A stretch of 64,000 nt of DNA from Stomorhina lunata (Eukaryota > Arthropoda > Insecta > Diptera > Rhiniidae), in assembly GCA_933228675.1 (NCBI GenBank), contig OW121741.1, forward strand, positions 19,354,797-19,418,796, in the 5' to 3' direction. The notes under the pieces were generated by a model. That model was not told where the DNA came from. It searched no databases and saw nothing but the letters and a program-made list of their open reading frames with translations. The position numbers and the translations under genes were made by a program. Below, piece by piece: positions 14,961 to 59,600 of the stretch (positions are counted from its first letter, which is position 1; each line of letters begins with the position of its first letter).

Positions 14961-17594
14961 TTGACATAAACAAAGACATATACTAAGACATAGACTAAGA
15001 GATAGACTAAAACATAGACTAAGACATAGACTAAGATTTATACTAAGACATAGACTAAGACATAGACTAGGACATAGACTAAGACATAGACTAAGACATA
15101 GACTAAGATATAGACTAAGACATAGACTAAGACATAGACTAAGACATAGACTAAGACATAGACTAAGACATAGACTAAGACATAGACTAAGACATAGACT
15201 AAGACATAGACTAAGACATAGACTAAGACATAGACTAAGACATAGACTAAGACATAGACTAAGACATAGACTAAGACATAGACTAAGACATAGACTAAGA
15301 CATAGACTAAGATATAGACTAAGACATAGACTAAGATATAGACTAAGACATAGACTAAGACATAGACTAAGACATAGGCTAATACATAGACTAAGACATA
15401 GACTAAGACATAGACTAAGACATAGACTAAGACATAGACTAAGACATAGACTAAGACATAGACTAAGACATAGACTAAGACATAGACTAAGACATAGACT
15501 AAGATATAGACTAAGACATAGACTAAGATATAGACTAAGACATAGACTAAGACATAGACTAAGACATAGACTAAGATATAGACTAAGGCATAGACATAGA
15601 CTTAGATATAGACTAAGGCATAGACTAAGATATAGACTAAGACATAGACTAAGACATAGACTAAGACATAGACTAAGATATAGACTAAGACATAGACTAA
15701 GACGTAGACTAAGACATAGACTAAGACATAGACTATGACATAGACTAAGACATAGACTAAGACATAGACTAAGACATAGACTAAGACATAGACTAAGACA
15801 TAGACTAAGACATAGACTAAGACATAGACTAAGACATAGACTAAGACATAGACTAAGACATAGACTAAGACATAGACAAAGACATAGACTAAGACTAAGA
15901 CATAGACTAAGACATAGACTAAGACATAGACTAAGACATAGACTAAGACATAGACTAAGACATAGACTAAGACATAGACTAAGACATAGACTAAGACATA
16001 GACTAAGACATAGACTAAGACATAGACTAAGACATAGACTAAGACATAGACTAAGACATAGACTAAGACATAGACTAAGACATAGACTAAGACATAGACT
16101 AAGACATAGACTAAGACATAGACTAAGATATAGACTAAGACATAGACTAAGATATAGACTAAGACATAGACTAAGACATAGACTAAGACATAGGCTAAGA
16201 CATAGACTAAGACATAGACTAAGACATAGACTAAGACATAGACTAAGACATAGACTAAGACATAGACTAAGACATAGACTAAGACATAGACTAAGATATA
16301 GACTAAGACATAGACTAAGACATAGACTAAGACATAGACTAAGATATAGACTAAGGCATAGACATAGACTTAGATATAGACTAAGGCATAGACATAGACT
16401 AAGACATAGACTGAGATAAAGACTAAGACATAGACTAAGACATAGACTAAGACATAGACTAAGACATAGACTAAGACATAGACTAAGACATAGACTAAGA
16501 CATAGACTAAGACATAGACTAAGACATAGACTAAGACATAGACTAAGACATAGACTAAGACATAGACTAAGACATAGACTAAGACATAGACTAAGACATA
16601 ACTAAGACATAGACTAAGACATAGACTAAGACAGAAACTAAGACAGAGACTAAGACATAGACTAAGACTAAAAAAATTTCTTAAATTTTACAAAAATTTT
16701 AAATTTTTTAAATTTTAGATAATTTCATAAATTAAGACATAGACTAAGACATAGACTAAGACATAGACTAAGACATAGACTAAGACATAGACTAAGACAT
16801 AGACTAAGACATAGACTAAGACATAGACTAAGACATAGACTAAGACATAGACTAAGACATAGACTAAGACATAGACTAAGACATAGACTAAGACATAGAC
16901 TAAGACATAGACTAAGACATAGACTAAGACATAGACTAAGACATAGACTAAGACATAGACTAAGACATAGACTAAGACATAGACTAAGACATAGACTAAG
17001 ACATAGACTAAGACATAGACTAAGACATAGACTAAGACATAGACTAAGACAAAGACATAGACTAAGACATAGACTAAAACATAGACTAAGACATAGACTA
17101 AGACATAGACTAAGACATAGACTAAGACATAGACTAAGACATAGACTAAGACATAGACTAAGACATAGACTAAGACATAGACTAAGACATAGACTAAGAC
17201 ATAGACTAAGACATAGACTAAGACATAGACTAAGACATAGACTAAGACATAGACTAAGACATAGACTAAGACATAGACTAAGACAAAGACTAAGACATAG
17301 ACATAGACTAAGATATAGACTAAGACATAGACTAAGACATAGACTAAGACATAGACTAAGACATAGACTAAGACATAGACTAAGACATAGACTAAGACAT
17401 AGACTAAGACATAGACTAAGACATAGACTAAGACATAGACTAAGACATAGACTAAGACATAGACTAAGACATAGACTAAGACATAGACTAAGACATAGAC
17501 TAAGACATAGACTAAGACATAGACTAAGACATAGACTAAGATAGAAACTAAGACAGAGACTAAGACATAGACTAAGACATGGACTAAGACTAAG
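14961..17594. repeat. 12-bp satellite GACATAGACTAA (about 210 copies), interrupted once
   Basis: Unit GACATAGACTAA, very homogeneous. It is interrupted at about 16671-16733 by an A/T segment (AAATTTCTTAAATTTTAC...) that occurs again at the array's right edge (17593-17655), showing that array plus flank were duplicated together. A variant block with GGCATAGACATAGACTTAG recurs at about 15589 and 16357, 768 bp (64 units) apart. Confidence 0.95.
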
Positions 17595-20454: not shown

Positions 20455-20670
20455 CTTAGTCTATGTTTCTATGTCTAAGTCTATGTCTTAGTCTATGTCT
20501 TAATCTATGTCTTAGTCTATGTCATAGTCTATGTCTTAGTCTATGTCTTGGTCTATGCCTTAGTCTATGTCTTAGTCTATATCTTAGTCTATGTCTTTGT
20601 CTATGTGTTAGTTTATGTCTTAGTATATGTCTTAGTCTAGACATAGATCAACACATAGTTTATGTCTTTG
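20455..20670. repeat. 12-bp satellite TTAGTCTATGTC, short array (about 17 copies)
   Basis: Same sequence as the satellite at 14961-17594 but on the opposite strand. More diverged than the long arrays. The leucine/cysteine/serine-rich open frame across it is a by-product of the repeat. Confidence 0.92.
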
Positions 20671-21891: not shown

Positions 21892-24800
21892 AAGTTCTGT
21901 TCTTGTTCAGTTCTAGTTTAGTTCTAGTTCAGTTCTAGTTCAGTTCTAGTTCAGTTCTAGTTCAGTTCTAGTTCAGTTCTAGTTCAGTTCTAGTTCTGTT
22001 CTAGTTCAGTTCTAGTTCAGTTCTATTTCAGTTCTAGTTCAGTTCTAGTTCAGTTTTAGTTCAGTTCTAGTTCAGTTCTAGTTCAGTTCTAGTTCAGTTC
22101 TAGTTCAGTTCTAGTTCAGTTCTAGTTCAGTTCTAGTTCAGTTCTAGTTCAGTTCTAGTTCAGTTCTAGTTCAGTTCTAGTTCAGTTCTAGTTCAGTTCT
22201 AGTTCAGTTCTAGTTCAGTTCTAGTTCAGTTCTAGTTCAGTTCTAGTTCAGTTCTAGTTCAGTTCTAGTTCAGTTCTAGTTCAGTTCTAGTTCAGTTCTA
22301 GTTCAGTTCTAGTTCAGTTCTAGTTCAGTTCTAGTTCAGTTCTAGTTCAGTTCTAGTTCAGTTCTAGTTCAGTTCTAGTTCAGTTCTAGTTCAGTTCTAG
22401 TTCAGTTCTAGTTCAGTTCTAGTTCTAGTTCAGTTCTAGTTCAGTTCTAGTTCAGTTCTAGTTCAGTTCTAGTTCAGTTCTAGTTCAGTTCTAGTTCAGT
22501 TCTAGTTCTGTTCTAGTTCAGTTCTAGTTCAGTTCTAGTTCAGTTCTAGTTTAGTTCTAGTTCAGTTCTAGTTCAGTTCTTGTTCTGTTCTAGTTCTGTT
22601 CTAGTTCTGTTCTAGTTCTGTTCTAGTTCTGTTCTAGTTCTGTTCTAGTTCTGTTCTAGTTCTGTTCTAGTTCTGTTCTAGTTCTGTTCTAGTTCTGTTC
22701 TAGTTCTGTTCTAGTTCTGTTCTAGTTCTGTTCTAGTTCTGTTCTAGTTCTGTTCTAGTTCTGTTCTAGTTCTGTTCTAGTTCTGTTCTAGTTCTGTTCT
22801 AGTTCTGTTCTAGTTCTGTTCTAGTTCTGTTCTAGTTCTGTTCTAGTTCTGTTCTAGTTCTGTTCTAGTTCTGTTCTAGTTCTGTTCTAGTTCTGTTCTA
22901 GTTCTGTTCTAGTTCTGTTCTGTTCTAGTTCTGTTCTAGTTCTGTTCTAGTTCTGTTCTAGTTCTGTTCTAGTTCTGTTCTAGTTCTGTTCTAGTTCTGT
23001 TCTAGTTCTGTTCTAGTTCTGTTCTAGTTCTGTTCTAGTTCTGTTCTAGTTCTGTTCTAGTTCTGTTCTAGTTCTGTTCTAGTTCTGTTCTAGTTCTGTT
23101 CTAGTTCTGTTCTAGTTCTGTTCTAGTTCTGTTCTAGTTCTGTTCTAGTTCTGTTCTAGTTCTGTTCTAGTTCTGTTCTAGTTCTGTTCTAGTTCTGTTC
23201 TAGTTCTGTTCTAGTTCTGTTCTAGTTCTGTTCTAGTTCTGTTCTAGTTCTGTTCTAGTTCTGTTCTAGTTCTGTTCTAGTTCTGTTCTAGTTCTGTTCT
23301 AGTTCTGTTCTAGTTCTGTTCTAGTTCTGTTCTAGTTCTGTTCTAGTTCTGTTCTAGTTCTGTTCTAGTTCTGTTCTAGTTCTGTTCTAGTTCTGTTCTA
23401 GTTCTGTTCTAGTTCTGTTCTAGTTCTGTTCTAGTTCTGTTCTAGTTCTGTTCTAGTTCTGTTCTAGTTCTGTTCTAGTTCTGTTCTAGTTCTGTTCTAG
23501 TTCTGTTCTAGTTCTGTTCTAGTTCTGTTCTAGTTCTGTTCTAGTTCTGTTCTAGTTCTGTTCTAGTTCTGTTCTAGTTCTGTTCTAGTTCTGTTCTAGT
23601 TCTGTTCTAGTTCTGTTCTAGTTCTGTTCTAGTTCTGTTCTAGTTCTGTTCTAGTTCTGTTCTAGTTCTGTTCTAGTTCTGTTCTAGTTCTGTTCTAGTT
23701 CTGTTCTAGTTCTGTTCTAGTTCTGTTCTAGTTCTGTTCTAGTTCTGTTCTAGTTCTGTTCTAGTTCTGTTCTAGTTCTGTTCTAGTTCTGTTCTAGTTC
23801 TGTTCTAGTTCTGTTCTAGTTCTGTTCTAGTTCTGTTCTAGTTCTGTTCTAGTTCTGTTCTAGTTCTGTTCTAGTTCTGTTCTAGTTCTGTTCTAGTTCT
23901 GTTCTAGTTCTGTTCTAGTTCTGTTCTAGTTCTGTTCTAGTTCTGTTCTAGTTCTGTTCTAGTTCTGTTCTAGTTCTGTTCTAGTTCTGTTCTAGTTCTG
24001 TTCTAGTTCTGTTCTAGTTCTGTTCTAGTTCTGTTCTAGTTCTGTTCTAGTTCTGTTCTAGTTCTGTTCTAGTTCTGTTCTAGTTCTGTTCTAGTTCTGT
24101 TCTAGTTCTGTTCTAGTTCTGTTCTAGTTCTGTTCTAGTTCTGTTCTAGTTCTGTTCTAGTTCTGTTCTAGTTCTGTTCTAGTTCTGTTCTAGTTCTGTT
24201 CTAGTTCTGTTCTAGTTCTGTTCTAGTTCTGTTCTAGTTCTGTTCTAGTTCTGTTCTAGTTCTGTTCTAGTTCTGTTCTAGTTCTGTTCTAGTTCTGTTC
24301 TAGTTCTGTTCTAGTTCTGTTCTAGTTCTGTTCTAGTTCTGTTCTAGTTCTGTTCTAGTTCTGTTCTAGTTCTGTTCTAGTTCTGTTCTAGTTCTGTTCT
24401 AGTTCTGTTCTAGTTCTGTTCTAGTTCTGTTCTAGTTCTGTTCTAGTTCTGTTCTAGTTCTGTTCTAGTTCTGTTCTAGTTCTGTTCTAGTTCTGTTCTA
24501 GTTCTGTTCTAGTTCTGTTCTAGTTCTGTTCTAGTTCTGTTCTAGTTCTGTTCTAGTTCTGTTCTAGTTCTGTTCTAGTTCTGTTCTAGTTCTGTTCTAG
24601 TTCTGTTCTAGTTCTGTTCTAGTTCTGTTCTAGTTCTGTTCTAGTTCTGTTCTAGTTCTGTTCTAGTTCTGTTCTAGTTCTGTTCTAGTTCTAGTTCTGT
24701 TCTAGTTCTGTTCTAGTTCTGTTCTAGTTCTGTTCTAGTTCTGTTCTAGTTCTGTTCTAGTTCTGTTCTAGTTCTGTTCTAGTTCTGTTCTAGTTCTGTT

Positions 24801-26820
24801 CTAGTTCTGTTCTAGTTCTGTTCTAGTTCTGTTCTAGTTCTGTTCTAGTTCTGTTCTAGTTCTGTTCTAGTTCTGTTCTAGTTCTGTTCTAGTTCTGTTC
24901 TAGTTCTGTTCTAGTTCTGTTCTAGTTCTGTTCTAGTTCTGTTCTAGTTCTGTTCTAGTTCTGTTCTAGTTCTGTTCTAGTTCTGTTCTAGTTCTGTTCT
25001 AGTTCTGTTCTAGTTCTGTTCTAGTTCTGTTCTAGTTCTGTTCTAGTTCTGTTCTAGTTCTGTTCTAGTTCTGTTCTAGTTCTGTTCTAGTTCTGTTCTA
25101 GTTCTGTTCTAGTTCTGTTCTAGTTCTGTTCTAGTTCTGTTCTAGTTCTGTTCTAGTTCTGTTCTAGTTCTGTTCTAGTTCTGTTCTAGTTCTGTTCTAG
25201 TTCTGTTCTAGTTCTGTTCTAGTTCTGTTCTAGTTCTGTTCTAGTTCTGTTCTAGTTCTGTTCTAGTTCTGTTCTAGTTCTGTTCTAGTTCTGTTCTAGT
25301 TCTGTTCTAGTTCTGTTCTAGTTCTGTTCTAGTTCTGTTCTAGTTCTGTTCTAGTTCTGTTCTAGTTCTGTTCTAGTTCTGTTCTAGTTCTGTTCTAGTT
25401 CTGTTCTAGTTCTGTTCTAGTTCTGTTCTAGTTCTGTTCTAGTTCTGTTCTAGTTCTGTTCTAGTTCTGTTCTAGTTCTGTTCTAGTTCTGTTCTAGTTC
25501 TGTTCTAGTTCTGTTCTAGTTCTGTTCTAGTTCTGTTCTAGTTCTGTTCTAGTTCTGTTCTAGTTCTGTTCTAGTTCTGTTCTAGTTCTGTTCTAGTTCT
25601 GTTCTAGTTCTGTTCTAGTTCTGTTCTAGTTCTGTTCTAGTTCTGTTCTAGTTCTGTTCTAGTTCTGTTCTAGTTCTGTTCTAGTTCTGTTCTAGTTCTG
25701 TTCTAGTTCTGTTCTAGTTCTGTTCTAGTTCTGTTCTAGTTCTGTTCTAGTTCTGTTCTAGTTCTGTTCTAGTTCTGTTCTAGTTCTGTTCTAGTTCTGT
25801 TCTAGTTCTGTTCTAGTTCTGTTCTAGTTCTGTTCTAGTTCTGTTCTAGTTCTGTTCTAGTTCTGTTCTAGTTCTGTTCTAGTTCTGTTCTAGTTCTGTT
25901 CTAGTTCTGTTCTAGTTCTGTTCTAGTTCTGTTCTAGTTCTGTTCTAGTTCTGTTCTAGTTCTGTTCTAGTTCTGTTCTAGTTCTGTTCTAGTTCTGTTC
26001 TAGTTCTGTTCTAGTTCTGTTCTAGTTCTGTTCTAGTTCTGTTCTAGTTCTGTTCTAGTTCTGTTCTAGTTCTGTTCTAGTTCTGTTCTAGTTCTGTTCT
26101 GTTCTAGTTCTGTTCTAGTTCTGTTCTAGTTCTGTTCTAGTTCTGTTCTAGTTCTGTTCTAGTTCTGTTCTAGTTCTGTTCTAGTTCTGTTCTAGTTCTG
26201 TTCTAGTTCTGTTCTAGTTCTGTTCTAGTTCTGTTCTAGTTCTGTTCTAGTTCTGTTCTAGTTCTGTTCTAGTTCTGTTCTAGTTCTGTTCTAGTTCTGT
26301 TCTAGTTCTGTTCTAGTTCTGTTCTAGTTCTGTTCTAGTTCTGTTCTAGTTCTGTTCTAGTTCTGTTCTAGTTCTGTTCTAGTTCTGTTCTAGTTCTGTT
26401 CTAGTTCTAGTTCTGTTCTAGTTCTGTTCTAGTTCTGTTCTAGTTCTGTTCTAGTTCTGTTCTAGTTCTGTTCTAGTTCTGTTCTAGTTCTGTTCTAGTT
26501 CTGTTCTAGTTCTGTTCTAGTTCTGTTCTAGTTCTGTTCTAGTTCTGTTCTAGTTCTGTTCTAGTTCTGTTCTAGTTCTGTTCTAGTTCTGTTCTAGTTC
26601 TGTTCTAGTTCTGTTCTAGTTCTGTTCTAGTTCTGTTCTAGTTTTGTTCTAGTTCTGTTCTAGTTCTGTTCTAGTTCTGTTCTAGTTCTGTTCTAGTTCT
26701 GTTCTAGTTCTGTTCTAGTTCTGTTCTAGTTCTGTTCTAGTTCTGTTCTAGTTCTGTTCTAGTTCTGTTCTAGTTCTGTTCTAGTTCTGTTCTAGTTCTG
26801 TTCTAGTTTTGTTCTAGTTC
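21892..26820. repeat. 11-bp satellite AGTTCWGTTCT (about 448 copies)
   Basis: A 4.9-kb array with an 11-bp period. From 21.9 to about 22.58 kb nearly all units are AGTTCAGTTCT; from there to the end nearly all are AGTTCTGTTCT. Rare units have lost a few bases (near 22421, 22917, 24689, 26098, 26406). On the plus strand 8 of 11 bases are pyrimidines. No gene inside. Confidence 0.97.
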
Positions 26821-28410
26821 TATTTTACTTTTAGTTCCATTTAAATCCCTTTTCTGTATAACTGTTATTGTGTAGCACTTTGTTAGAAGTTAATAACATG
26901 AGTAATTTACTCAAATCTCTTAAAAGCTTGTGTATTTTGGTCCCTTTTCCCCATTTTTTCCTTTTATGTTAAAACAATATCATGTAGCCCAAACAAGAAT
27001 CCGTTTATTTCAACATATTTATAGCAAAAGTGTTGACAGTAAATAACAAGACCATAATATTTTTGAACATGAAAAAAAAAGACAACAGCTTTTGAAAACT
27101 GTTACATTTGTAAAGACTGACTGACAGTGGATTTGAGAACCCTTAGACAGACACTCATTTGTTCAGCTCTTGCAGACATTGAGACAAAATACACAATTTT
27201 AAAATAATATATTTTTAAACACAAAAAAAATCTAACAATTCCCATTTCCCATAAGCTACTTATAAGACACAAATTTAAGTAGAGATAACAATCCGGGACA
27301 CGACCAAATACAAAAAAAGACACAGACCAAAAGGACAAAAATACCATAAATACTCGACATCCTCTTGGCCCTTTTGCTGTTGTTTGCTTTCTAAGTAAAG
27401 AAAAGGAACTCAAATTTTTAAGACCAACAAAAAGAAAGGGGGAAAAGGAATCATAACATTCATAAATTTTATTTAAATATTAAATATTTGACACATTTAT
27501 TTTATTGTCCTTTATTGCTGTTCTTTTGGTGTTTTAAGACATTTTAAAATTTTCTTATTTTTTTGTCGGGTTTTTGTCTGTCTTTGGTTTTTTTTTATTT
27601 CCCTTAAGTAGTTTTACTTACAAGTGTTAATAATAAGATTTATTTTCGAAATTTTCAAGAGTCTATAAAAATGTTAATAAAGTTAAATATTTTAAATTTA
27701 TAACACGTTGTTTATAGGGGAATCAACATTTAAATGTGACATTTGTTTGGTATAATGGGTCGTATGATTGATATTAATTGCTCATAGATTTTATTTATTC
27801 AGGAATTTTATGAGTTTGAATGATATATAATGGCTAATTTTAGAGCGATTTAAGACACAAGAACCCGCTTAAAGGGAATTTGAAAAATCTAGAATAAAAC
27901 TGTTAAGGAATGTTAAAGGTATAAGGCCTCAAAGTGGTGATTTGGGGAAAAACTTTTGAAAAAAAGTAATTTTCTTAAATAGTTAGAGTATCTTTAGTTC
28001 GTTTTAGTCTGATCTTATTTGTAACTCTAGTACTTAAATTTTGTAACAAGTTCCTTCTATTTATTACTTAATTTACTTTTTTGCATCTACTCTTCTTCCA
28101 TATCCCAACTTTAGTCTGTCTGTCCCAATTTCCTGTTGCAACAATTGTATAACAAACAGTGCAGAGCAATTTGTTTGCTGTTTAAACAAAAAAAACAAAA
28201 AAAAAAAGAACTAAAATGAAACTGAAGATAATTTTATGAATTATTGTACATAACCCACATATACATTCATCCTCACATATTTAAACACTCTAATGCATAT
28301 ACACACATACTCACATCAACCGGAAATATTCAAGACATGTAGCATTTATTACTTAAATGCATGATCAATGCCCAATAGTTACAAAACGGGGAACCAGACC
28401 TAGCTAGTAT
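26821..28410. other. Unique intergenic sequence with one 19-bp core
   Basis: No gene supported; the 100-codon open frame near 27102-27413 lacks protein-like character. It contains an isolated copy of the 19-bp core CGTATGATTGATATTAATT at 27761-27779 and an A-run near 28186-28207. Confidence 0.5.
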
Positions 28411-30281
28411 GGTCTATATATAGACAGATTAATCTATATATAGAGAGCTTGGTCTATATATAGACAGATTGGTCCATATATAGACAGGTTGGTCTATATA
28501 TAGACAGATTGGTCTATTTAAAGACAGATTGGTCTGTATATAGACCAATTGGGTTATATATAGACATATTGGCCTATTTATAGACAAATTGGTCTATATA
28601 TAGACAGATTGATCTATATATAGACAGATTTTTCTATACATTGACGGATTAGTCTATATATGGACAGATTGGTCTGTACATACATAGACTGGTCTCTATA
28701 TAGACAGACTGGTCTATATATAGACAGATTGGTCTATATATAGACATATTGATCTATATAAAGACATATTGGTCTATATATAGACATATTGGTCTATATA
28801 TACACAGATTGATCTATATATAGACATACTCGTCTTTATATAGACAGATTGGTCTATATATAGACGGATTGATCTTTATGTAGATAGATTGGTCTATATA
28901 CAGAGAGATTGGTCTATGTAAACAGATTGGACCACATATAGACAGATTGATCGATATATAGACAAATTGGCCTATATATAGACATATTGATCTACATAAA
29001 GAAAGATTGATCTATATATAGATAGATTGATCTATATATGGATAGATTGGTCTTTATGCAGTCAGATTGGTCTGACTATAGACAGATTTGACCATATATA
29101 GACAGATTGGGGTATATATAGACATATTGATCTGTATATAGACAGAATGTTCAATATGTAGACACATTGGTCAATATATATAGACAGATTGGTCTGTATA
29201 CAGACAGACTGTTCTATACATAGACAGATTGATCTATATATAAACAGATTGATCTATATATAGACAGATTGATCTATATATGGACAGAAATATACAGACA
29301 GATTGGTCTATATATAGACAGATTGGAATATACAGACAGATTGGTCTATATATAAACAGATTGGTCTATATATGAAGAGATTGATCTATATGGACAGATT
29401 GGTCTATATATAGTCAGATTGGTCTATATATAGAAAGATTGGACTATATATAGACAGATTGGTCTATATATGGACAAATTGGTCTATATACAGACAGATT
29501 GGTCTATATATAGACAGATTGGTCTATATATAGTCAGATTGGTCTATATATAGTCAGATTGCTCCATATAGATAGATTCGTCTATATAGGCAGATTGGTC
29601 TATATATAGACAGATTGATCTATATCTAGACAGATTATTCTATATATAGACAGTTTGGTCTATATATAGACAGACTGGTCTATAAATAGTCAGATTGGTC
29701 TGTATATGGACATATTGTTCAATATATAGACAGATTAGTCTATATGTGGATAAATGTGTCTATATACAGACAGATCGGGCTATACACAGACAGATTATCT
29801 ATATATAGACGGTTTGGACTATATATAGACAGATTGGTCTGTATATAGTCAGATTGGTCTGCATATAGACAGATTGTTCAATATGTAAACAGATTGGTCT
29901 ATATATAGACAGATTGTTTAATATATAGATAGATTGTTCTATATATAGACAGATTAGTCTATATATAGACAGACTGGTTTATATAAAGATAGACTGATCT
30001 ATATATACACAGATTTTTCTATATATAGATAGACTGGTATATATATAGAGCGATTGCTTTATGTATGTATAGACTGTTCTATATATAGACATATCGGTCT
30101 ACAAATAAACAGATGGGTCTAGACAGATTTTGCTCTACATATAGAGAGATTGGTCTATATATTGATAGATTAGACTGGTCAATATATAGATGGATTGGTC
30201 TATATATAAACAGATGGGTCTATATATAGATTGCTCTATATATAAATAGATTGGTCTATATAAAGATAGATTGGTCTATAT
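28411..30281. repeat. 20-bp palindromic array GGTCTATATATAGACAGATT (about 93 copies)
   Basis: Degenerate head-to-tail array. Each unit carries the 12-bp perfect palindrome TCTATATATAGA. Moderate divergence, some units shortened. No coding content. Confidence 0.95.
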
Positions 30282-30429
30282 CTCTTGCCTCAAAATCAAG
30301 CGTTCTACGGGACTACCCTGAAGAATTACAGCTTAATATCCCACGAATGATACCAGATCATTGACAAGTTTTTCTGTAGTTAAGTCTCTGGGTTCTGTCT
30401 TCCCGAGCCCAGGATTGCCCTAGATATCT

Positions 30430-31935
30430 TTGTGACTCATAAGTCAAAGATGACTCAGCAGTTTAAGACTACCCATGACTTCGAGATGACTAATTTACTT
30501 AGAAATTCGATATGACTCAGAGGTTGGAGATGACAAAGTAATTCGGGATGACTCAACAGTTTGAGATAACTCATTTATTTCAAGAAAACTTATTATATTT
30601 AGTTGATTTAACAGTTCATGATGACTCAGCAGTTGGATGTAATTAAGTAGTTCTAGATGAATTGGCAGTTTAAGATGACTCAGCAATTCGAGATGACTCA
30701 GAAATTTGGTGTAACTGAGTGTTTCGAGATTATTATGCAATATGAGATCACTTAGCTTATTCCGATATGATTAAAAAATTGGCGATGACAAAGTAGTTTT
30801 AGATGACTCAGCAGTTTCAGATGACTCACTTCTTTCGAGAAGACATTATTTTTAGAAGATTTAATACTTCATGATAACTCAGCAGTTCGAGAAAATTAAG
30901 TAGTTCGAGATGACTCAGCTGTTATAGATGACTTAGCTGTTCAGAATGACTCAGCTATTCAAGATGACTCAGCTGTTCGAGATGACTCAGAAGTTTGATG
31001 TTACTAAGTAGTTCGAGGTTATTCAGTAGTATGAGATCACTTAGCCAATTCGAGGTGACTCAGAAGTTCAGGAGTTCAGTCTTCCCAAATCAAACATCAG
31101 CCCTGAATTGCCGAATATCTCTTTCTGACCTATTAGTGTAAGATGACTTGAGTCAGATGATGACTGAGCAGTTTGATGACTGAGCAGTTTGAGATGACTC
31201 ATTACTTCCAGATGACTTATTTACTTAGCAATTCGATAAGACTCAGAGGTTTCAGATGACTCAGCAGTTTGAGATGACTCAGCAGTTTGAGATGACTCAT
31301 CAGTTAAAGAGGACTCGTTTGTTTCTAGAAAACTTATTATTTTTAGATGATTTAACATTGCATGATGACTCAGATGATTAAGTGGTTCGAGATGACTCAG
31401 CTGTTTAAGATGACTCAGATGTTTGGAATAACTCAGCTATTCAAGATAACGCAGCAGTGTTAAATCATTTATAAAATTCGAGATGACTCAGCAGTTTAGG
31501 ATAACCCAGAAGCTTAAATTGACTCAGTAAAACAAGATGACTCATTATTACTTAAATGAGTCAGTTTATGATGACTCATTTGTTTTGAAAAGACTTATTG
31601 TTTTTAGATGATTTAGCAGTTCACGATGACTCTGCACTTCAAGATGACTAAATAGTTATTGATGTCTCAGTAGATTAATATGACTCAGCTGTTTGGAGTA
31701 ACTCAGCTGTTCAAGGTAACTCAGCAGTGTAAAATCACTTATAAAATTTGAGATGACTGAGTAGTCCCGGATAACACAGAAGCTTGAATTGACTAAGCAG
31801 AACTGGATGACTTATTATTAATTAAATGCATAAACCATTTACTTAAGAAGACACAACCATTTTTTGATGAGTTATCAGTTAGCCATGATTCATCATGATG
31901 AGATGATATACCAATTGGAGATGACTCAGTAACTC
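30430..31935. repeat. ~18-bp degenerate array of TGACTCA (AP-1/ARE-like) motifs
   Basis: Unit approximately AGATGACTCAGCAGTTTG. I count about 29 exact TGACTCA (two as TGAGTCA); about 12 read TGACTCAGC, which satisfies the antioxidant-response core TGACNNNGC. Larger blocks repeat too: the region near 30390-30460 (GTTCTGTCTTCCC...) recurs diverged near 31075-31150, and a block beginning TTATTWTTTTTAGATGATTT recurs at about 30590, 30845, 31335 and 31600. Confidence 0.9.
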
Positions 31936-34812: not shown

Positions 34813-35821
34813 TATTTATACCACATACATATATTTTTATTATTACAAAATAAATTTGAATAAAATGAAAACTTGCTTATTTATTTATATAAAAACTCAC
34901 TAAAAGTTAACTGAGTTCTTGAGCAAAAAATACATAAAATTATTATAATTATTTTCATATCAAAAAAAAAAAAAAAAAACATGGAAAAAAAGTTTAAAAC
35001 AAACTAAAATGACTTACTTCTTGGAAGGAGTAAGGACTCGAATAATAACAGAGTCTTGTTGAACAAGTCACTGAACTTTTCCAGATATTCAGGATGTTCA
35101 CGACAACAAAAACATTACATTCACTTTAAAGTAAGTTATTGTTTATTTACAAAAAAGGAAACAAAAAATCATAGAAAACTTGAGAAAAACCAAAAACAAA
35201 ATGTTATTTTAAGTAAAAGTTCTATTAAAACGTAAGTTTTTTGACTTTAAATAAATACAATTTTTAATGTAAAAAATTTGAAAATTATTTAGCACATAAA
35301 ATGCCATTAAAATTAGTATCAAATTTTCCTTAAACTTTAACAATTAACCCAAAAAAGCTTAACCTTTAAATTTTCCCACTAATTAATATTAATCATACGC
35401 TTCATATAATAAAAAGTATAATCTCCGTTTTAAACCCAAAAATAAGCTTATCTTCAAAATGTTTTAAGCTCAAATGCTTTAAGCATAAACCATTTCCCCT
35501 TTTCAATCTTAAGACCTCTAACTATTTTCCCCATTAGACTGATATTTTGGAAATGCCACTTGAAATTTCTCTTTGTATCCGCAAGATTTGTGCTATGTCT
35601 TACCTTGTCTATGACATTAACATTTCAAATACCATAAGCTTTAAATGTCTTTGCATGAGGAATTCAGACCTTTAAAAATCGTTTTGCTATTTGAACATAG
35701 ATAAATGTTAAAGACTTACATAGATATAAAGGGTAAATCAAATGAGTGGAATAAAAAGAAAATTGATATTTAAAGACATAAAATTCCAGCTAACATGTTT
35801 AGTCCAAAAAGATAATTTTTT
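34813..35821. other. Intergenic sequence with one inverted 19-bp core
   Basis: Contains a reverse-orientation core (AATTAATATTAATCATACG) at 35381-35399 and a long A-run at 34961-34979. No gene; a splice-donor-like AGAAGTAAGT on the minus strand near 35019 stands alone. Confidence 0.45.
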
Positions 35822-37722
35822 CAACGAAAATGTTTCTATAGAAAAAATTTTTTAACGAAAATGTTTCTATAGAAAAAATTTTTTAACGAAAATGTTTCTA
35901 TAGAAAAATTTTTTTAACGAAAATTTTTCTATAGAAAAATTTTTTTAACAAAAATTTTTCTATAGAAAAATTTTTTTAACTCAAATTTTTCTATAGAAAA
36001 ATTTTTTTAACTAAAATTTTTCTATAGAAAAATTTTTTTAACTAAAATTTTTCTATAGAAAAATTTTTTTAACTCAAATTTTTCCATAGTAAAATTTTTT
36101 TAACTCAAATTTTTCTATAGAAATATTTTTTTAACGAAAATTTTTCTATAGAAACATTTTTTTAACGAAAATTTTTCTATAGAAAAATTTTTTTAACGAA
36201 AATTTTTCTATAGAAAAATTTTTTTAACGAAAATTTTTCTATAGAAAAATTTGTTTAAATAAAATTTTTCTATAGAAAAATTTGTTTAACGAAAATTTTT
36301 CTATAGAAAAATTTGTTTAACGAAAATTTTTCTATAAAAAAATTTGTTTAACGAAAATTTTTCTATAGAAAAATTTTTTTAACGAAAATTTTTCTATAGA
36401 AAAATTATTTTAACGAAAATTTTTCTAAAGAAAAATTATTTTAACGAAAATTTTTCTAAAGAAAAATTATTTTAACGAAAATTTTTCTAAAGAAAAATTT
36501 TTTTAACGAAAATTTTTCTATAGAAAAATTTTTTTAACGAAAATTTTTCTATAGAAAAATTTTTTTAACGAAAATTTTTCTATAGAAAAATTTTTTTAAC
36601 GAAAATTTTTCTATAGAAAAATTTTTTTAACGAAAATTTTTCTATAGAAAAATTTTTTTAACGAAAATTTTTCTATAGAAAAATTTTTTTAACGAAAATT
36701 TTTCTATAGAAAAATTTTTTTAACGAAAATTTTTCTATAGAAAAATTTTTTTAACGAAAATTTTTCTATAGAAAAATTTTTTTAACGAAAATTTTTCTAT
36801 AGAAAAATTTTTTTAACGACAATTTTTCTATAGAAAAATTTTTTTAACGAAAATTTTTCTATAGACAAATTTTTTTAACGAAAATTTTTCTATAGAAAAA
36901 TTTTTTTAACGAAAATTTTTCTATAGAAAAATTTCTTAACGAAAATTTTTCTATAGAAAAATTTTTTTAACGAAAATTTTTCTATAGAAAAATTTTTTTA
37001 ACGAAAATTTTTCTATAGAAAAATTTTTTTAACGAAAATTTTTCTAAAGAAAAATTTTTTTAACGAAAATTTTTCTATAGAAAAATTTTTTTAACGAAAA
37101 TTTTTCTATAGAAAAATTTTTTTAACGAAAATTTTTCTATAGAAAAATTTTTTTAACGAAAATTTTTCTATAGAAAAATTTTTTTAACGAAAATTTTTCT
37201 ATAGAAAAATTTTTTTAACGAAAATTTTTCTATAGAAAAATTTTTTTAACGAAAATTTTTCTATAGAAAAATTTTTTTAACGAAAATTTTTCTATAGAAA
37301 AATTTTTTTAACGAAAATTTTTCTATAGAAAAATTTTTTAACGAAAATTTTTCTATAGAAAAATTTTTTTAACTAAAATTTTTCTATAGAAAAATTTTTT
37401 TTACTCAAATTTTTCTATAGTTAAATTTTTTTTAACGAAAATTTTTCTATAGAAAAATTTTTTTTAACGAAAATTTTTCTATAGAAAAATTTTTTTTAAC
37501 GAAAATTTTTCTATAGAAAAATTTTTTTTAACGAAAATTTTTCTATAGAAAAATTTTTTTTAACGAAAATTTTTCTATAGAAAAATTTTTTTTAACGAAA
37601 ATTTTTCTATAGAAAAATTTTTTTTAACGAAAAATTTTCTATAGAAAAATTTTTTTTAACGAAAATTTTTCTATAGAAAAATTTTTTTAACTCAAATTTT
37701 GTATAGAAAAATTTTTTTAACG
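35822..37722. repeat. 31-bp tandem array C (about 61 copies)
   Basis: Unit contains TTAACGAAAATTTTTCTATA followed by GAAAAATTTTT. The segment centred on CTATAG is a perfect 24-bp palindrome with AAAATTTTT and AAAAATTTT arms. The middle is highly homogeneous, with variants (AACTCAAATT, AACTAAAATT, CTAAAGAAAAA) grouped in runs. It ends at 37722 exactly where the left arm of the large inverted repeat begins. Confidence 0.95.
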
Positions 37723-38720
37723 ACAGCAGCGATCACTTAGATTTTTTTCCCCTCTTTTGTCACTCTCTACTTAAGGGGACGAATTGGATCCTTTCTGTAA
37801 GATTTAAATTATCAGCCGCAAAACTTTTTCTATTTAATTGAAATTATTTAAAATTTAATAGAAACTTATAATGAAGAGCTCGTAAATGGGTAAAATTGTT
37901 AAACTGATTTTTATAACTTATTTGCTGAATGTACTTAAATTATATAGAAAATCTCAAGACAATTATTTAATTAAAATCGGTCAACAAATGACAAAGTTAT
38001 AGAGCATTTTGTGAAACCACCTCTGAATTAATATCAATCATACGTCACGGTGAAAGAAATTTTATTTTTGCTAATTTTTCAAAGAATTTTGCATGTTTTG
38101 CAATATTTTAAAATTGTTTTGTATTCTAGACATTTTTCTGAACACTTTCAAATCCTAAAGTTTTAGTTAAGTTATTAAAGTTAATTTTTATCTACGATTT
38201 AAAAATAAGTTTAATGAATTTTTATTTTTTTTCCCCAAAAACTTTTTTGGTGTTATCAAAGAAAAGAACTGTATATTGCAGTAGTTGTAATAAATTGGGA
38301 TTCTACTATAATACCTTTTTATTAAACTTTTTATAAAATATTTAAAATCCATTAACTTAAATAAAAATTATTTACGTTTTAGAAATGTTTACAAATTTTA
38401 GTTTTGGGCCTCGTAAAATGGTATGTGGGTTAGGATAATTTTGAAAAATTACTTAAGACCCATAGTAAAATTTTATAGAGAATCTGAAAAAAATTATTCC
38501 ATTTAAATCAAATAATAAATGCCAAAGTCATACAGCATTATGTGAAATCACCTCTGAATTAATATCAATCATACGTCCTGGTGGAATAAATTTTATTTGT
38601 GCTAATATTTCAAAGAATTTTCCACAATTGGCAATATTTTCAAATTGTTTTATATTTAAGAGATTTTCCTAGATATTTTCAGGCCCTAAAATTTTTAATT
38701 TACATTGTTTTTCTATGCAA
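37718..38720 (-). repeat. Large inverted repeat, left arm (two ~360-bp-family units)
   Basis: Two units with minus-oriented cores at 38026-38044 and 38557-38575. It aligns in reverse complement with 39870-41955: for example AAATTATTTAAAATTTAATA and GAGCTCGTAA near 37842-37884 match 41695-41735 reversed, and CACCTCTGAATTAATATCAA near 38550 matches 40038-40062 reversed. Confidence 0.85.
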
Positions 38721-54578: not shown

Positions 54579-55879
54579 TTAAATTTCATTACATTTCGAA
54601 TTCATTAAGGTCGCCCGACTGCTGCCCACATTCTGTGAGGCACTATAAAGCATCTCATAAATATGCGTATCGTCAGCATTATCCCGTTGTGTCTGTTCAT
54701 GCAATTGCTTAACAGCCTCTAAGTAGGCATCATATTTTGTGGTGTTTTCAAAATCATGTTTGATGTCCGAGTATAATTGCTGGATATTTCTGAGCTGTTG
54801 AGTGGGTTTGTCGTACAGGGAGACCGGGGCCTGGGGTAGCAGTAGTTGCCATTGTTCCTGTAGATAGTCCACAAATTCAAAGTTACTAAATAAATAGGCT
54901 ACCACGAGGTCGAGTCCCTTTTCCTTGAGTTTGCTGAATACCTCCATGAGATCGTGTTGGGATGATTCCGAACTTTGGAATTGTTCATAGTCCACGGCCA
55001 GATCATGTTGTAGATAATTGAAAAGTCTTTGACGTTTGGTATAGAAATCACGAATCTTGAGTAAGGCCTCAGTTTCAATGAGTATTTTGCGTAAAGAATC
55101 CGAATGTTGTGAGGGTTCTTCCTCTTCGGATTGGGGTTCTATCACTTCCAGCAATAATTTACGTATGATTATTAAATAATCATTAATAACCTCCGCACCT
55201 GCGTCATTGACTTTTGCATACAATTGTTTGCCAAATTCCTGTATATTAACGGCTATCGTATGGTTATCCTTGGCTCCTAATTTATGCAGCATATGACCCA
55301 CATTGTGCTCATTAATGGGTACCATTTGCAGGGATTTGGAATAGAAATTATGATGAACGGGGGGAGATTTTGGGGTAATAACCTTAAATTGTTTGCACAA
55401 ATAGAAATAACGTAAATTATGAATTTCTTGAGCACTTTCCTCCTGCAGCTGATAGAAACGATCCTTGAGTCTTTTAAGGAAATTGACATTTCTCAGGCTG
55501 TACATATTGTCGCGACTGGTATCCTTATTCTCTGACAAATCCAAAAACTGCTTGATAAAGACTATCTTGGGCTCAAGTCTCGGGGAGCTCAAGGCCAAAT
55601 TTAATTCTTGGTTAAAGTTATCCTCAACATTTGAAGGTTTTTTGATGTCTCTTAAAAATCTATTAAGATAGTCCAAAGCCGAGGCTTTCATGGTCTCACT
55701 GACACTTACTAAAAATTCTTTTTGGAAGTCCTTGGAGCTTAAGGAAACTTCCTTGGCCTAAAATGGAAAAATATTTTTAAAATTCAAATTTAAATAAATT
55801 TCGAAAATTTCTGAAACCTTACCTTTAAATTTCCCATTATACAGCCCCATATTATTAGCAATAAAAAATATTTCTTCAT
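54579..55879 (-). CDS. Uncharacterised secreted protein, two exons, 411 aa
   Basis: Join 55879-55823 and 55757-54579. Exon 1 encodes MKKYFLLLIIWGCIMGNLK, a Lys-Lys plus hydrophobic leader typical of a signal peptide, and ends AAG|GTAAGG. The 65-bp intron ends TTTTAG and exon 2 continues in phase 0 to TAA. The mature chain is hydrophilic with many amphipathic, probably helical stretches, an acidic patch SEEEE near residue 228-232, two possible N-glycosylation sites (NHT at about 184, NTT at about 357) and only two cysteines outside the leader (about 140 and 408), which might form one disulphide. No transmembrane segment after the leader and no catalytic motif are visible. Balanced codon use, 370 uninterrupted codons and clean splice signals in an A/T-rich desert argue for a real gene. 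I do not recognise the family. It is on the same strand as TEP, with its stop about 36 kb upstream of the TEP start codon. Confidence 0.85.
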
Positions 55880-56654: not shown

Positions 56655-59600
56655 AACACATGTCTATGTCTTGGGATATGACTTAGTATATGTCTAAGTC
56701 TGCGTTTTAATCAATATCTTAGTATACGTTTTAGTCTATGTCTTAGTCTATGTCTTAGTCTATGTCTTAGTCTATGCTTTAGTCTATGTTGTAGTCTATG
56801 TTTAAGTCTATTTCTCAGTCTATGAGTTAGTCTATGTCTTAGTCTATGTCTTAGTCTATGTCTTAGTCTATGTCTTAGTCTATGTCTTAGTCTATGTCTT
56901 AGTCTATGTCTTAGTCTATGTCTTAGTCTATGTCTTAGTCTATGTCTTAGTCTATGTCTTAGTCTATGTCTTAGTCTATGTCTTAGTCTATGTCTTAGCC
57001 TATGTCTTAGTCTTAGTCTATGTCTTAGTCTATGTCTTAGTCTATGTCTTAGTCTATGTCTTAGTCTATGTCTTAGTCTATGTCTTAGTCTATGTCTTAG
57101 TCTATGTCTTAGTCTATGTCTTAGTCTATGCCTTAGTCTATGTCTTAGTCTATGTCTTAGTCTATGTCTTAGTCTATGTCTTAGTCTATGTCTTAGCCTA
57201 TGTCTTAGTCTTAGTCTATGTCTTAGTCTATGTCTTAGTCTATGTCTTAGTCTATGTCTTAGTCTATGTCTTAGTCTATGTCTTAGTCTATGTCTTAGTC
57301 TATGTCTTAGTCTATGTCTTAGTCTATGTCTTAGTCTATGTCTTAGTCTATGTCTTAGTCTATGTCTTAGTCTATGTCTTAGTCTATGTCTTAGTCTATG
57401 TCTTAGTCTATGTCTTAGTCTATGTCTTAGTCTATGTCTTAGTCTATGTCTTAGTCTATGTCTTAGTCTATGTCTTAGTCTATGTCTTAGTCTATGTCTT
57501 AGTCTATGTCTTAGTCTATGTCTTAGTCTATGTCTTAGTCTATGTCTTAGTCTATGTCTTAGTCTATGTCTTAGTCTATGTCTTAGTCTATGTCTTAGTC
57601 TATGTCTTAGTCTATGTCTTAGTCTATGTCTTAGTCTATGTCTTAGTCTATGTCTTAGTCTATGTCTTAGTCTATGTCTTAGTCTATGTCTTAGTCTATG
57701 TCTTAGTCTATGTCTTAGTCTATGTCTTAGTCTATGTCTTAGTCTATGTCTTAGTCTATGTCTTAGTCTATGTCTTAGTCTATGTCTTAGTCTATGTCTT
57801 AGTCTATGTCTTAGTCTATGTCTTAGTCTATGTCTTAGTCTATGTCTTAGTCTATGTCTTAGTCTATGTCTTAGTCTATGTCTTAGTCTATGTCTTAGTC
57901 TATGTCTTAGTCTATGTCTTAGTCTATGTCTTAGTCTATGTCTTAGTCTATGTCTTAGTCTATGTCTTAGTCTATGTCTTAGTCTATGTCTTAGTCTATG
58001 TCTTAGTCTATGTCTTAGTCTATGTCTTAGTCTATGTCTTAGTCTATGTCTTAGTCTATGTCTTAGTCTATGTCTTAGTCTATGTCTTAGTCTATGTCTT
58101 AGTCTATGTCTTAGTCTATGTCTTAGTCTATGTCTTAGTCTATGTCTTAGTCTATGTCTTAGTCTATGTCTTAGTCTATGTCTTAGTCTATGTCTTAGTC
58201 TATGTCTTAGTCTATGTCTTAGTCTATGTCTTAGTCTATGTCTTAGTCTATGTCTTAGTCTATGTCTTAGTCTATGTCTTAGTCTATGTCTTAGTCTATG
58301 TCTTAGTCTATGTCTTAGTCTATGTCTTAGTCTATGTCTTAGTCTATGTCTTAGTCTATGTCTTAGTCTATGTCTTAGTCTTTGTCTTAGTCTATGTCTT
58401 TGTCTATATCTTAGTCTTAGTCTATGTCTTAGTCTATGTCTTAGTCTATGTCTTAGTCTATGTCTTAGTCTATGTCTTAGTCTATGTCTTAGTCTATGTC
58501 TTAGTCTATGTCTTAGTCTATGTCTTAGTCTATGTCTTAGTCTATGTCTTAGTCTATGTCTTAGTCTATGTCTTAGTCTATGTCTTAGTCTATGTCTTAG
58601 TCTATGTCTTAGTATATGTCTTAGTCTATGTCTTAGTCTATGTCTTAGTCTATGTCTTAGTCTATGTCTTAGTCTATGTCTTAGTCTATGTCTTAGTCTA
58701 TGTCTTAGTCTATGTCTTAGTCTATGTCTTAGTCTATGTCTTAGTCTATGTCTTAGTCTATGTCTTAGTCTATGTCTTAGTCTATGTCTTAGTCTATGTC
58801 TTAGTCTATGTCTTAGTCTATGTCTTAGTCTATGTCTTAGTCTATGTCTTAGTCTATGTCTTAGTCTATGTCTTAGTCTATGTCTTAGTCTATGTCTTAG
58901 TCTATGTCTTAGTCTATGTCTTAGTCTATGTCTTAGTCTATGTCTTAGTCTATGTCTTAGTCTATGTCTTAGTCTATGTCTTAGTCTATGTCTTAGTCTA
59001 TGTCTTAGTCTATGTCTTAGTCTATGTCTTAGTCTATGTCTTAGTCTATGTCTTAGTCTATGTCTTAGTCTATGTCTTAGTCTATGTCTTAGTCTATGTC
59101 TTAGTCTATGTCTTAGTCTATGTCTTAGTCTATGTCTTAGTCTATGTCTTAGTCTATGTCTTAGTCTATGTCTTAGTCTATGTCTTAGTCTATGTCTTAG
59201 TCTATGTCTTAGTCTATGTCTTAGTCTATGTCTTAGTCTATGTCTTAGTCTATGTCTTAGTCTATGTCTTAGTCTATGTCTTAGTCTATGTCTTAGTCTA
59301 TGTCTTAGTCTATGTCTTAGTCTATGTCTTAGTCTATGTCTTAGTCTATGTCTTAGTCTATGTCTTAGTCTATGTCTTAGTCTATGTCTTAGTCTATGTC
59401 TTAGTCTATGTCTTAGTCTATGTCTTAGTCTATGTCTTAGTCTATGTCTTAGTCTATGTCTTAGTCTATGTCTTAGTCTATGTCTTAGTCTATGTCTTAG
59501 TCTATGTCTTAGTCTTTGTCTTAGTCTATGTCTTTGTCTATATCTTAGTCTTAGTCTATGTCTTAGTCTATGTCTTAGTCTATGTCTTAGTCTATGTCTT

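What the first reader, a model, noticed from the sequence alone, without database searches (positions are those of the whole stretch)
30430..31935. A satellite-like array of AP-1 / antioxidant-response motifs
Seen: about 29 exact TGACTCA heptamers in 1.5 kb, about 12 of them TGACTCAGC. Known: TGACTCA is the Jun/Fos (Jra/Kay) site, and TGACNNNGC is the CncC-Maf core; revcomp ATGACTCAGCA equals TGCTGAGTCAT, an NF-E2-type site. By chance about 0.2 heptamers would be expected on both strands. Inference: whether selected or not, the array could act as a stress-responsive enhancer or as a decoy that titrates bZIP factors. It lies about 12 kb upstream of an immune (TEP) gene. The motif may also just be the chance core of a repeat unit.
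Basis: partly seen in the sequence, partly recalled or inferred. Interest (0 to 1): 0.75.

Follow-up and report, generated by a model that had tools for sequence, protein, structure and literature searches.

The report
Dispersed 18-base repeat carrying AP-1 motifs
The dense run of stress-response (AP-1) motifs is real, but the motif is simply part of an 18-base tandem repeat found at many places in this fly's genome, and it is not kept intact better than the bases just beside it, so it is most likely ordinary repeat DNA rather than a dedicated switch.

Summary
In detail: 29 TGACTCA sites at 30433-31928 (27 on +, 2 on -), 12 of them TGACTCAGC, against about 0.2 expected. The region is about 85 head-to-tail copies of a worn 18-bp unit, AGATGACTCAGCAGTTYR. 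The unit is not peculiar to this locus: a search of the own genome (728 Mb, blowfly-like) scored 40 of 674 candidates and gave 73 matches on five large contigs, and the unit's 16-mer occurs 863 times, reversed control 0.

Across 37 arrays (about 1,760 units), TGACTCA ranks fourth of 18 windows in conservation, behind the three windows shifted to its left. The G and second C that AP-1 needs are often mutated: genome-wide 168 and 188 single variants against 863 exact copies. The heptamer is somewhat better kept than positions to its right, so a weak, broader constraint is not excluded. Flanks give no sign of one common carrier element in the 29 loci examined.

Best reading: a dispersed minisatellite family spread by recombination or slippage, whose core happens to be a bZIP site. 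Enhancer or decoy activity remains untested. The nearest TEP exon found is 29.5 kb away, not 12 kb.

The parts
30430..31935 (+). Degenerate tandem array of an 18-bp unit, AGATGACTCAGCAGTTYR, about 85 units, with 27 TGACTCA on + and 2 on -
   Evidence: Unit decomposition; autocorrelation peaks 18/36/54; heptamer positions; same unit genome-wide
30382..31060 (+). First super-copy: about 50 bp of non-repeat left border (TTCTGTCTTCCC...GGATTGCCC) plus array
   Evidence: Aligns end to end with 31064-31812
31064..31812 (+). Second super-copy: the same border sequence, diverged, recurs at about 31064-31130 inside the array, followed by array; shows a segmental tandem duplication of about 0.7 kb
28410..30281 (+). 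Adjacent, unrelated 20-bp tandem array (TGGTCTATATATAGACAGAT); context only, not part of the family

Best explanation
It is one copy of a dispersed minisatellite (short-unit satellite) family. An 18-bp unit, AGATGACTCAGCAGTTYR, has been multiplied head to tail by slippage and unequal exchange at many places in a blowfly-like genome, and later wears by point mutation. TGACTCA is frequent because it lies in the unit, not because each site was gained or kept as a transcription-factor site. Shown: the tandem unit, the 0.7 kb segmental duplication inside the array, the many other arrays with the same unit, and the lack of heptamer-specific conservation. Inferred: spread and upkeep by slippage/unequal exchange with little or no selection on the motif. 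AP-1 (Jra/Kay) or CncC-Maf proteins could probably bind it in a test tube (recalled site preferences); whether they do so in chromatin is unknown.
For: Periodic 18-bp unit, about 85 copies. Internal super-duplication including non-repeat border. Same unit elsewhere: 40 of 674 first-look candidates scored, 73 matches on C1, C2, C7, C10 and C11; 16-mer 398 forward + 465 reverse, reversed control 0/0; the first 100 listed hits fall into 37 clusters on C1. Per-array consensus is the same 18-mer at nearly every column in 29 of 29 arrays, changing mainly at columns 13, 16 and 17. In 37 arrays TGACTCA (mean 0.872, 712 copies) ranks below GATGACT (0.887, 793), AGATGAC (0.880, 729) and ATGACTC (0.877, 720). 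G4, essential for AP-1, is mutated at least as often as G1 outside the motif: 29 v 19 single variants beside 164 exact copies, difference not significant; genome-wide G4 168 and C8 188 beside 863. C11, part of the CNC-Maf TGACnnnGC core, is one of the poorest kept positions (0.678; 349 genome-wide). Neighbouring arrays in the window show the same motif-in-a-repeat effect, e.g. about 389 TGTTCT (recalled as a steroid-receptor half-site) in the 11-bp array.
Against: Conservation is not flat. Base-matched, the heptamer loses 0.049 less than other positions (95% 0.015 to 0.087). Genome-wide its G4 and C8 (168, 188) vary less than G10 and C11 to its right (246, 349). In 4 of 5 self-alignments within the window array the heptamer diverged less than the rest (e.g. 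36/211 v 79/295; one pair reversed, 12/67 v 14/95); these pairs overlap and the outside includes the Y/R-polymorphic columns. The genome-wide count for G1, the key comparator on the left, could not be obtained.
Confidence: 0.85

Rival explanations
1. The array is a latent or stress-responsive enhancer: AP-1 and/or CncC-Maf bind the homotypic cluster and switch a neighbouring gene, perhaps under MORC-like repression as described for human tandem-repeat enhancers.
For: 29 exact sites in 1.5 kb, more than the >15 motifs at which the human MORC3-repressed element begins to behave as a repressed enhancer; AP-1 clusters are among the MORC3-restricted human tandem repeats (PMC13373173: abstract and passages). 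TEP-like immune gene in the same window. Slightly lower divergence in the heptamer than in base-matched positions.
Against: The same unit occurs at many other places, the heptamer is not the best-kept window, the nearest TEP exon found is 29.5 kb away, and in the human study only about 50 of about 1000 dense PU.1 clusters were accessible and bound, with few acting on genes. Whether this genome has a MORC gene was not learned (search unanswered).
Confidence: 0.06
2. The family as a whole acts as a sink that titrates bZIP factors.
For: AP-1 sites per array in the 37-array sample: median 18, range 3-55. From 37 clusters per 100 16-mer hits and 863 hits, roughly 320 arrays and roughly 6% of the genome's AP-1 heptamers would lie in the family (rough extrapolation; C1's end may be untypical and the sample favours strong matches). 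Satellite DNA sequestering C/EBP is a published precedent (passage in PMC12085094; the original paper was not read).
Against: By the same estimate about 94,000 heptamers lie elsewhere, so the sink would be small unless arrays are unusually accessible. No heptamer-specific upkeep.
Confidence: 0.04
3. The arrays are carried around by a transposable element (for example a Helitron-type element with internal tandem repeats).
For: Dispersed arrays on five contigs in both orientations. Helitron/Helentron-carried satellite arrays are known (passages of PMC10048060). Loci L001, L008 and L011 share flanking DNA of up to 92% identity.
Against: In 29 loci the arrays begin and end at different unit phases with visibly different borders, and the shared flank stretches listed lie at varying distances or are other repeats (that listing was cut at about 60 rows). 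It concerns origin and does not compete with the neutral reading of the motif.
Confidence: 0.1
4. The array is the remnant of a protein-coding hexapeptide repeat (18 bp = 6 codons).
For: Two frames of the perfect unit are open; longest stop-free stretch in the array is 91 codons.
Against: All six frames of the array carry many stops, many units have lengths other than 18, and stops and frame breaks sit throughout.
Confidence: 0.01

Closest known systems
Dispersed euchromatic satellite-like short arrays of insects (e.g. Drosophila 1.688 euchromatic copies; Tribolium euchromatic satDNAs), as reviewed in PMC10048060 (passages only)
   Same: Short tandem arrays of one unit scattered over several chromosomes, some near genes; poor homogenisation between distant arrays.
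   Different: Unit is only 18 bp and contains a bZIP heptamer; arrays here run to about 120 units rather than a few large monomers.
MORC3-repressed tandem-repeat enhancers of human monocytes (IFNB1-MRE), PMC13373173 (abstract and passages)
   Same: Dense homotypic motif cluster (45 PU.1 sites there, 29 AP-1 sites here) created by tandem repetition, near an innate-immunity gene; AP-1 clusters occur among the restricted repeats.
   Different: There, binding, repression and enhancer activity were shown by experiment; here nothing but sequence is known, the unit is found at many loci, and the TEP gene is tens of kb away.
Satellite DNA as transcription-factor sink (C/EBP on alpha-satellite; cited in PMC12085094, passage only)
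   Same: A repeated unit that contains a bZIP-type site.
   Different: No binding data; sites here are roughly 6% of the genome's AP-1 heptamers by a rough estimate.

Membership tests
Minisatellite / dispersed short-unit satellite family | Head-to-tail tandem copies of a short unit | tested here: met
   18-bp unit, about 85 copies
Minisatellite / dispersed short-unit satellite family | Same unit in arrays at many genomic places | tested here: met
   73 matches from 40 of 674 candidates scored; 863 exact 16-mers, control 0; 37 distinct arrays analysed
Minisatellite / dispersed short-unit satellite family | Non-coding | tested here: met
   Stops in all six frames across the array
Functional AP-1 / CncC-Maf enhancer | Dense cluster of consensus sites beyond chance | tested here: met
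   29 sites v about 0.2 expected
Functional AP-1 / CncC-Maf enhancer | Motif kept better than adjoining unit positions | tested here: inconclusive
   Heptamer better than base-matched outside positions by 0.049, but fourth of 18 windows in 37 arrays and no better than windows shifted left; CNC-defining C11 poorly kept
Functional AP-1 / CncC-Maf enhancer | Conserved array at the orthologous place in other flies | not testable with these tools
   No other fly genome DNA available
Functional AP-1 / CncC-Maf enhancer | Open chromatin, factor binding, effect on a gene | not testable with these tools
   No such data
MORC-repressed tandem-repeat enhancer | More than 15 homotypic motifs in a tandem repeat | tested here: met
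   29 here; 25 of 37 sampled arrays have at least 15
MORC-repressed tandem-repeat enhancer | Presence of a MORC protein in the genome | not tested
   Search unanswered
Transposon-borne tandem repeat | Common element sequence flanking the arrays at fixed distance | tested here: not met
   Borders differ between the 29 loci printed; shared flank pieces are few in kind or are other repeats; pair listing was cut at about 60 rows

The most novel reading that the evidence does not exclude
A family of hundreds of arrays, each holding typically 10-50 AP-1/CNC-type sites, is spread through a fly genome and forms a distributed set of latent, repressible stress enhancers (a MORC-type logic outside mammals) or a bZIP sink; the better-kept left part of the unit (AGATGACTCA) would be the footprint of that use.
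Probability: 0.06. Interest if true: 0.75.

Novelty: new member of a known kind. Interest (0 to 1): 0.27.

Why it matters
It shows how a repeat can produce a striking motif cluster without selection on the motif, and gives a test for that: compare the motif with shifted windows of the same unit over many arrays. If the arrays were nevertheless bound, this fly would offer a natural series of AP-1 arrays from 3 to 55 sites in which the dependence of repression or activation on motif number could be measured.

Tried and rejected
Coding repeat: rejected because of stops in all frames and off-length units. Single carrier transposon: flanks of 29 loci compared; no common border seen, although L001, L008 and L011 share some flanking DNA, and the printed pair list was cut at about 60 rows. 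Literature on AP-1 in satellites: 0 papers hold 'satellite DNA' + 'AP-1 binding sites' + 'tandem repeat'; 2 hold 'TGACTCA' + 'minisatellite' and, by title and abstract start only, concern other things; I saw no description of this 18-bp unit (15 of 653 papers listed), which is not proof that there is none. TEP first exon: not found. Two-heptamer 18-bp spacing search of the genome: not completed. Genome-wide counts for G1 and G13 variants: not completed; replaced by counts in the 37 fetched arrays. Rows dropped before counting: L005 and L020 (overlap L003 and L006); of the 30 loci L032-L061, nine were analysed because the others fall in the same arrays or in L017/L019, and one of the nine (L035, same array as L034) was removed after one search had counted it twice (corrected). 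The extent of the L001 array was set by hand, and L001 was found through a pattern containing TGACTCA.

Full report
Observation. Between 30433 and 31928 there are 29 exact TGACTCA on the two strands, 27 of them on +, of 32 in the whole 64 kb window. Twelve are TGACTCAGC and seven ATGACTCAGCA. Outside the array the window has 3 AP-1 heptamers in 62,495 bp, and the flanks of 29 related arrays have 15 in 76,670 bp, about 0.13 per kb. So about 0.2 would be expected in 1.5 kb, and the excess is about 150-fold.

What it is. The stretch matches itself best at offsets of 18, 36 and 54 bp. Wrap-around alignment splits it into about 85 units of an 18-bp consensus AGATGACTCAGCAGTTTG, in which columns 16 and 17 are mixed T/C and G/A, hence ...TTYR. 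The left border sequence at about 30382-30430 recurs, diverged, at about 31064-31130, and 30382-31060 aligns with 31064-31812. So the array has also been doubled as a block of about 0.7 kb. Other, unrelated tandem arrays fill much of the window; the 20-bp array 28410-30281 ends about 150 bp before this one.

Surroundings. On the left the window holds a thioester-protein (TEP) exon at 222-911 on the - strand, with MG2 and MG3 domains and TEP relatives in Musca and Drosophila. On the right, 54579-55808 (- strand) encodes an uncharacterised protein 73% identical to one of Calliphora vicina, with relatives in Lucilia, Cochliomyia, Sarcophaga, Musca and Stomoxys. The organism is therefore blowfly-like; the species was not identified. 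The array lies 29.5 kb from the TEP exon and 22.6 kb from the other gene.

The rest of the genome. The window lies in G000:C2 of a 728 Mb assembly of 104 contigs. A DNA search with the array found 674 first-look candidates, scored 40, and gave 73 matches on C1, C2, C7, C10 and C11. The exact 16-mer AGATGACTCAGCAGTT occurs 398 + 465 = 863 times, the reversed control 0 times. The first 100 listed occurrences all fall in C1:3.8-16.4 Mb, in 37 clusters separated by more than 5 kb. Scaled up this suggests roughly 320 loci, with the caution that this end of C1 is denser than average (100 of 863 hits in about 1.7% of the genome) and that arrays without an exact 16-mer are missed.

The test that matters. 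If TGACTCA were kept for AP-1, it should be kept better than neighbouring words of the same unit. In the window array GATGACT is commoner (31) than TGACTCA (27). In 29 arrays with about 1,500 units, and in 37 distinct arrays with 1,760 units, the best-kept 7-base windows are GATGACT (0.887), AGATGAC (0.880) and ATGACTC (0.877), then TGACTCA (0.872). In the heptamer's own phase 708 of 1,662 scored words are TGACTCA; the next are TGACTTA (144), TAACTCA (97) and TTACTCA (55), changes expected to spoil AP-1 binding (recalled). G4 is mutated about as often as G1 and G10 outside (0.231 v 0.219, difference interval -0.066 to 0.083). In the 37 arrays single variants beside 164 exact 16-mers number 29 at G4, 19 at G1, 22 at G10, 24 at C8, 9 at C6, 32 at C11 and 80 at G13. 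The C of the CNC-Maf core TGACnnnGC (C11) is among the poorest kept.

Results against this reading. The unit does not decay evenly. Base-matched, the heptamer changes less than the other positions by 0.049 (95% 0.015 to 0.087), though GATGACT (0.071), AGATGAC (0.066), ATGACTC (0.058) and GACTCAG (0.053) do as well or better. Genome-wide, single variants beside 863 exact copies number 168 at G4 and 188 at C8 inside the heptamer, 246 at G10 and 349 at C11 outside (one reversed-control hit for the C11 pattern). The left comparator G1 did not complete genome-wide. In self-alignments of the window array the heptamer diverged less than the rest in four of five pairs (36/211 v 79/295; 9/49 v 21/74; 13/92 v 26/132; 7/62 v 19/87) and more in one (12/67 v 14/95); these pairs overlap and the outside contains the Y/R columns. 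The fair statement is that the left ten bases, AGATGACTCA, are better kept than the right eight, with no peak on the AP-1 heptamer itself. An extended ATGACTCA site under weak constraint is not excluded.

Origin. Arrays in the 29 printed loci start and stop at different phases with different borders, and no common carrier element is evident (list cut at about 60 rows); L001, L008 and L011 share flank pieces. Nine of 37 loci have another repeat word of this window, CTATAGAAAA, five or more times in their flanks, so several dispersed repeat families lie close together.

How it most likely works. As a minisatellite: unequal exchange and slippage enlarge and shrink it, blocks duplicate, copies wear. 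This is inferred from anatomy and comparison. Binding of AP-1 or CncC-Maf would be a by-product. The best published parallel for a function is the human MORC3 work (PMC13373173; abstract and passages read): tandem repeats with dense homotypic motifs, AP-1 clusters among them, are held closed, and one becomes an interferon enhancer when MORC3 is lost. The same paper finds only about 50 of about 1000 dense PU.1 clusters accessible and bound even without MORC3, and only one further restricted repeat with activated neighbours, so the chance that any one such array matters is low. Whether this genome encodes a MORC protein was not learned.

Verdict. Real, well counted, and explained by a repeat unit. 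A new member of a known kind; low to moderate interest, with a small chance of something larger at the family level.

Noticed in passing
window 21893-26821: An 11-bp array (AGTTCTGTTCT) carries TGTTCT at 78.9 per kb on both strands together, about 389 copies; TGTTCT is recalled as a steroid-receptor half-site. The same motif-in-a-repeat effect as the given finding.
   Followed up: partly
window 14963-17590, 20468-20639, 56662-62500: One 12-bp unit in both orientations: GACATAGACTAA at the first place, its reverse complement at the other two; the last array is 5.8 kb at 97% match. The frames through it give open stretches of 1,821-1,908 codons without being genes.
   Followed up: no
window 35814-37723; flanks of L003, L010, L011, L018, L024, L026, L028, L029, L040: The word CTATAGAAAA of the window's 31-bp array is frequent (5 or more) in the flanks of 9 of 37 loci with the 18-bp arrays, so several tandem families lie side by side in this genome.
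   Followed up: partly
G000:C1:3.78-16.36 Mb: The first 100 of 863 occurrences of the 18-bp family's 16-mer fall in 12.6 Mb near one end of C1, about 1.7% of the genome; other strong matches also lie towards contig ends (e.g. C11:110-117 of 119 Mb). The distribution looks uneven.
   Followed up: partly
18-bp unit, columns 0-9 v 10-17: The left part AGATGACTCA is better kept than the right part in 37 arrays, and columns 16-17 are mixed T/C and G/A in many arrays. No explanation for the gradient was found.
   Followed up: partly
window 54579-55808, - strand: Gene for an uncharacterised protein of about 413 aa with 12 relatives found, those named being calyptrate flies; no Pfam domain and no solved-structure match.
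   Followed up: partly
window 28410-30281: A 20-bp array rich in the palindrome CTATATATAG lies about 150 bp to the left of the AP-1 array.
   Followed up: no
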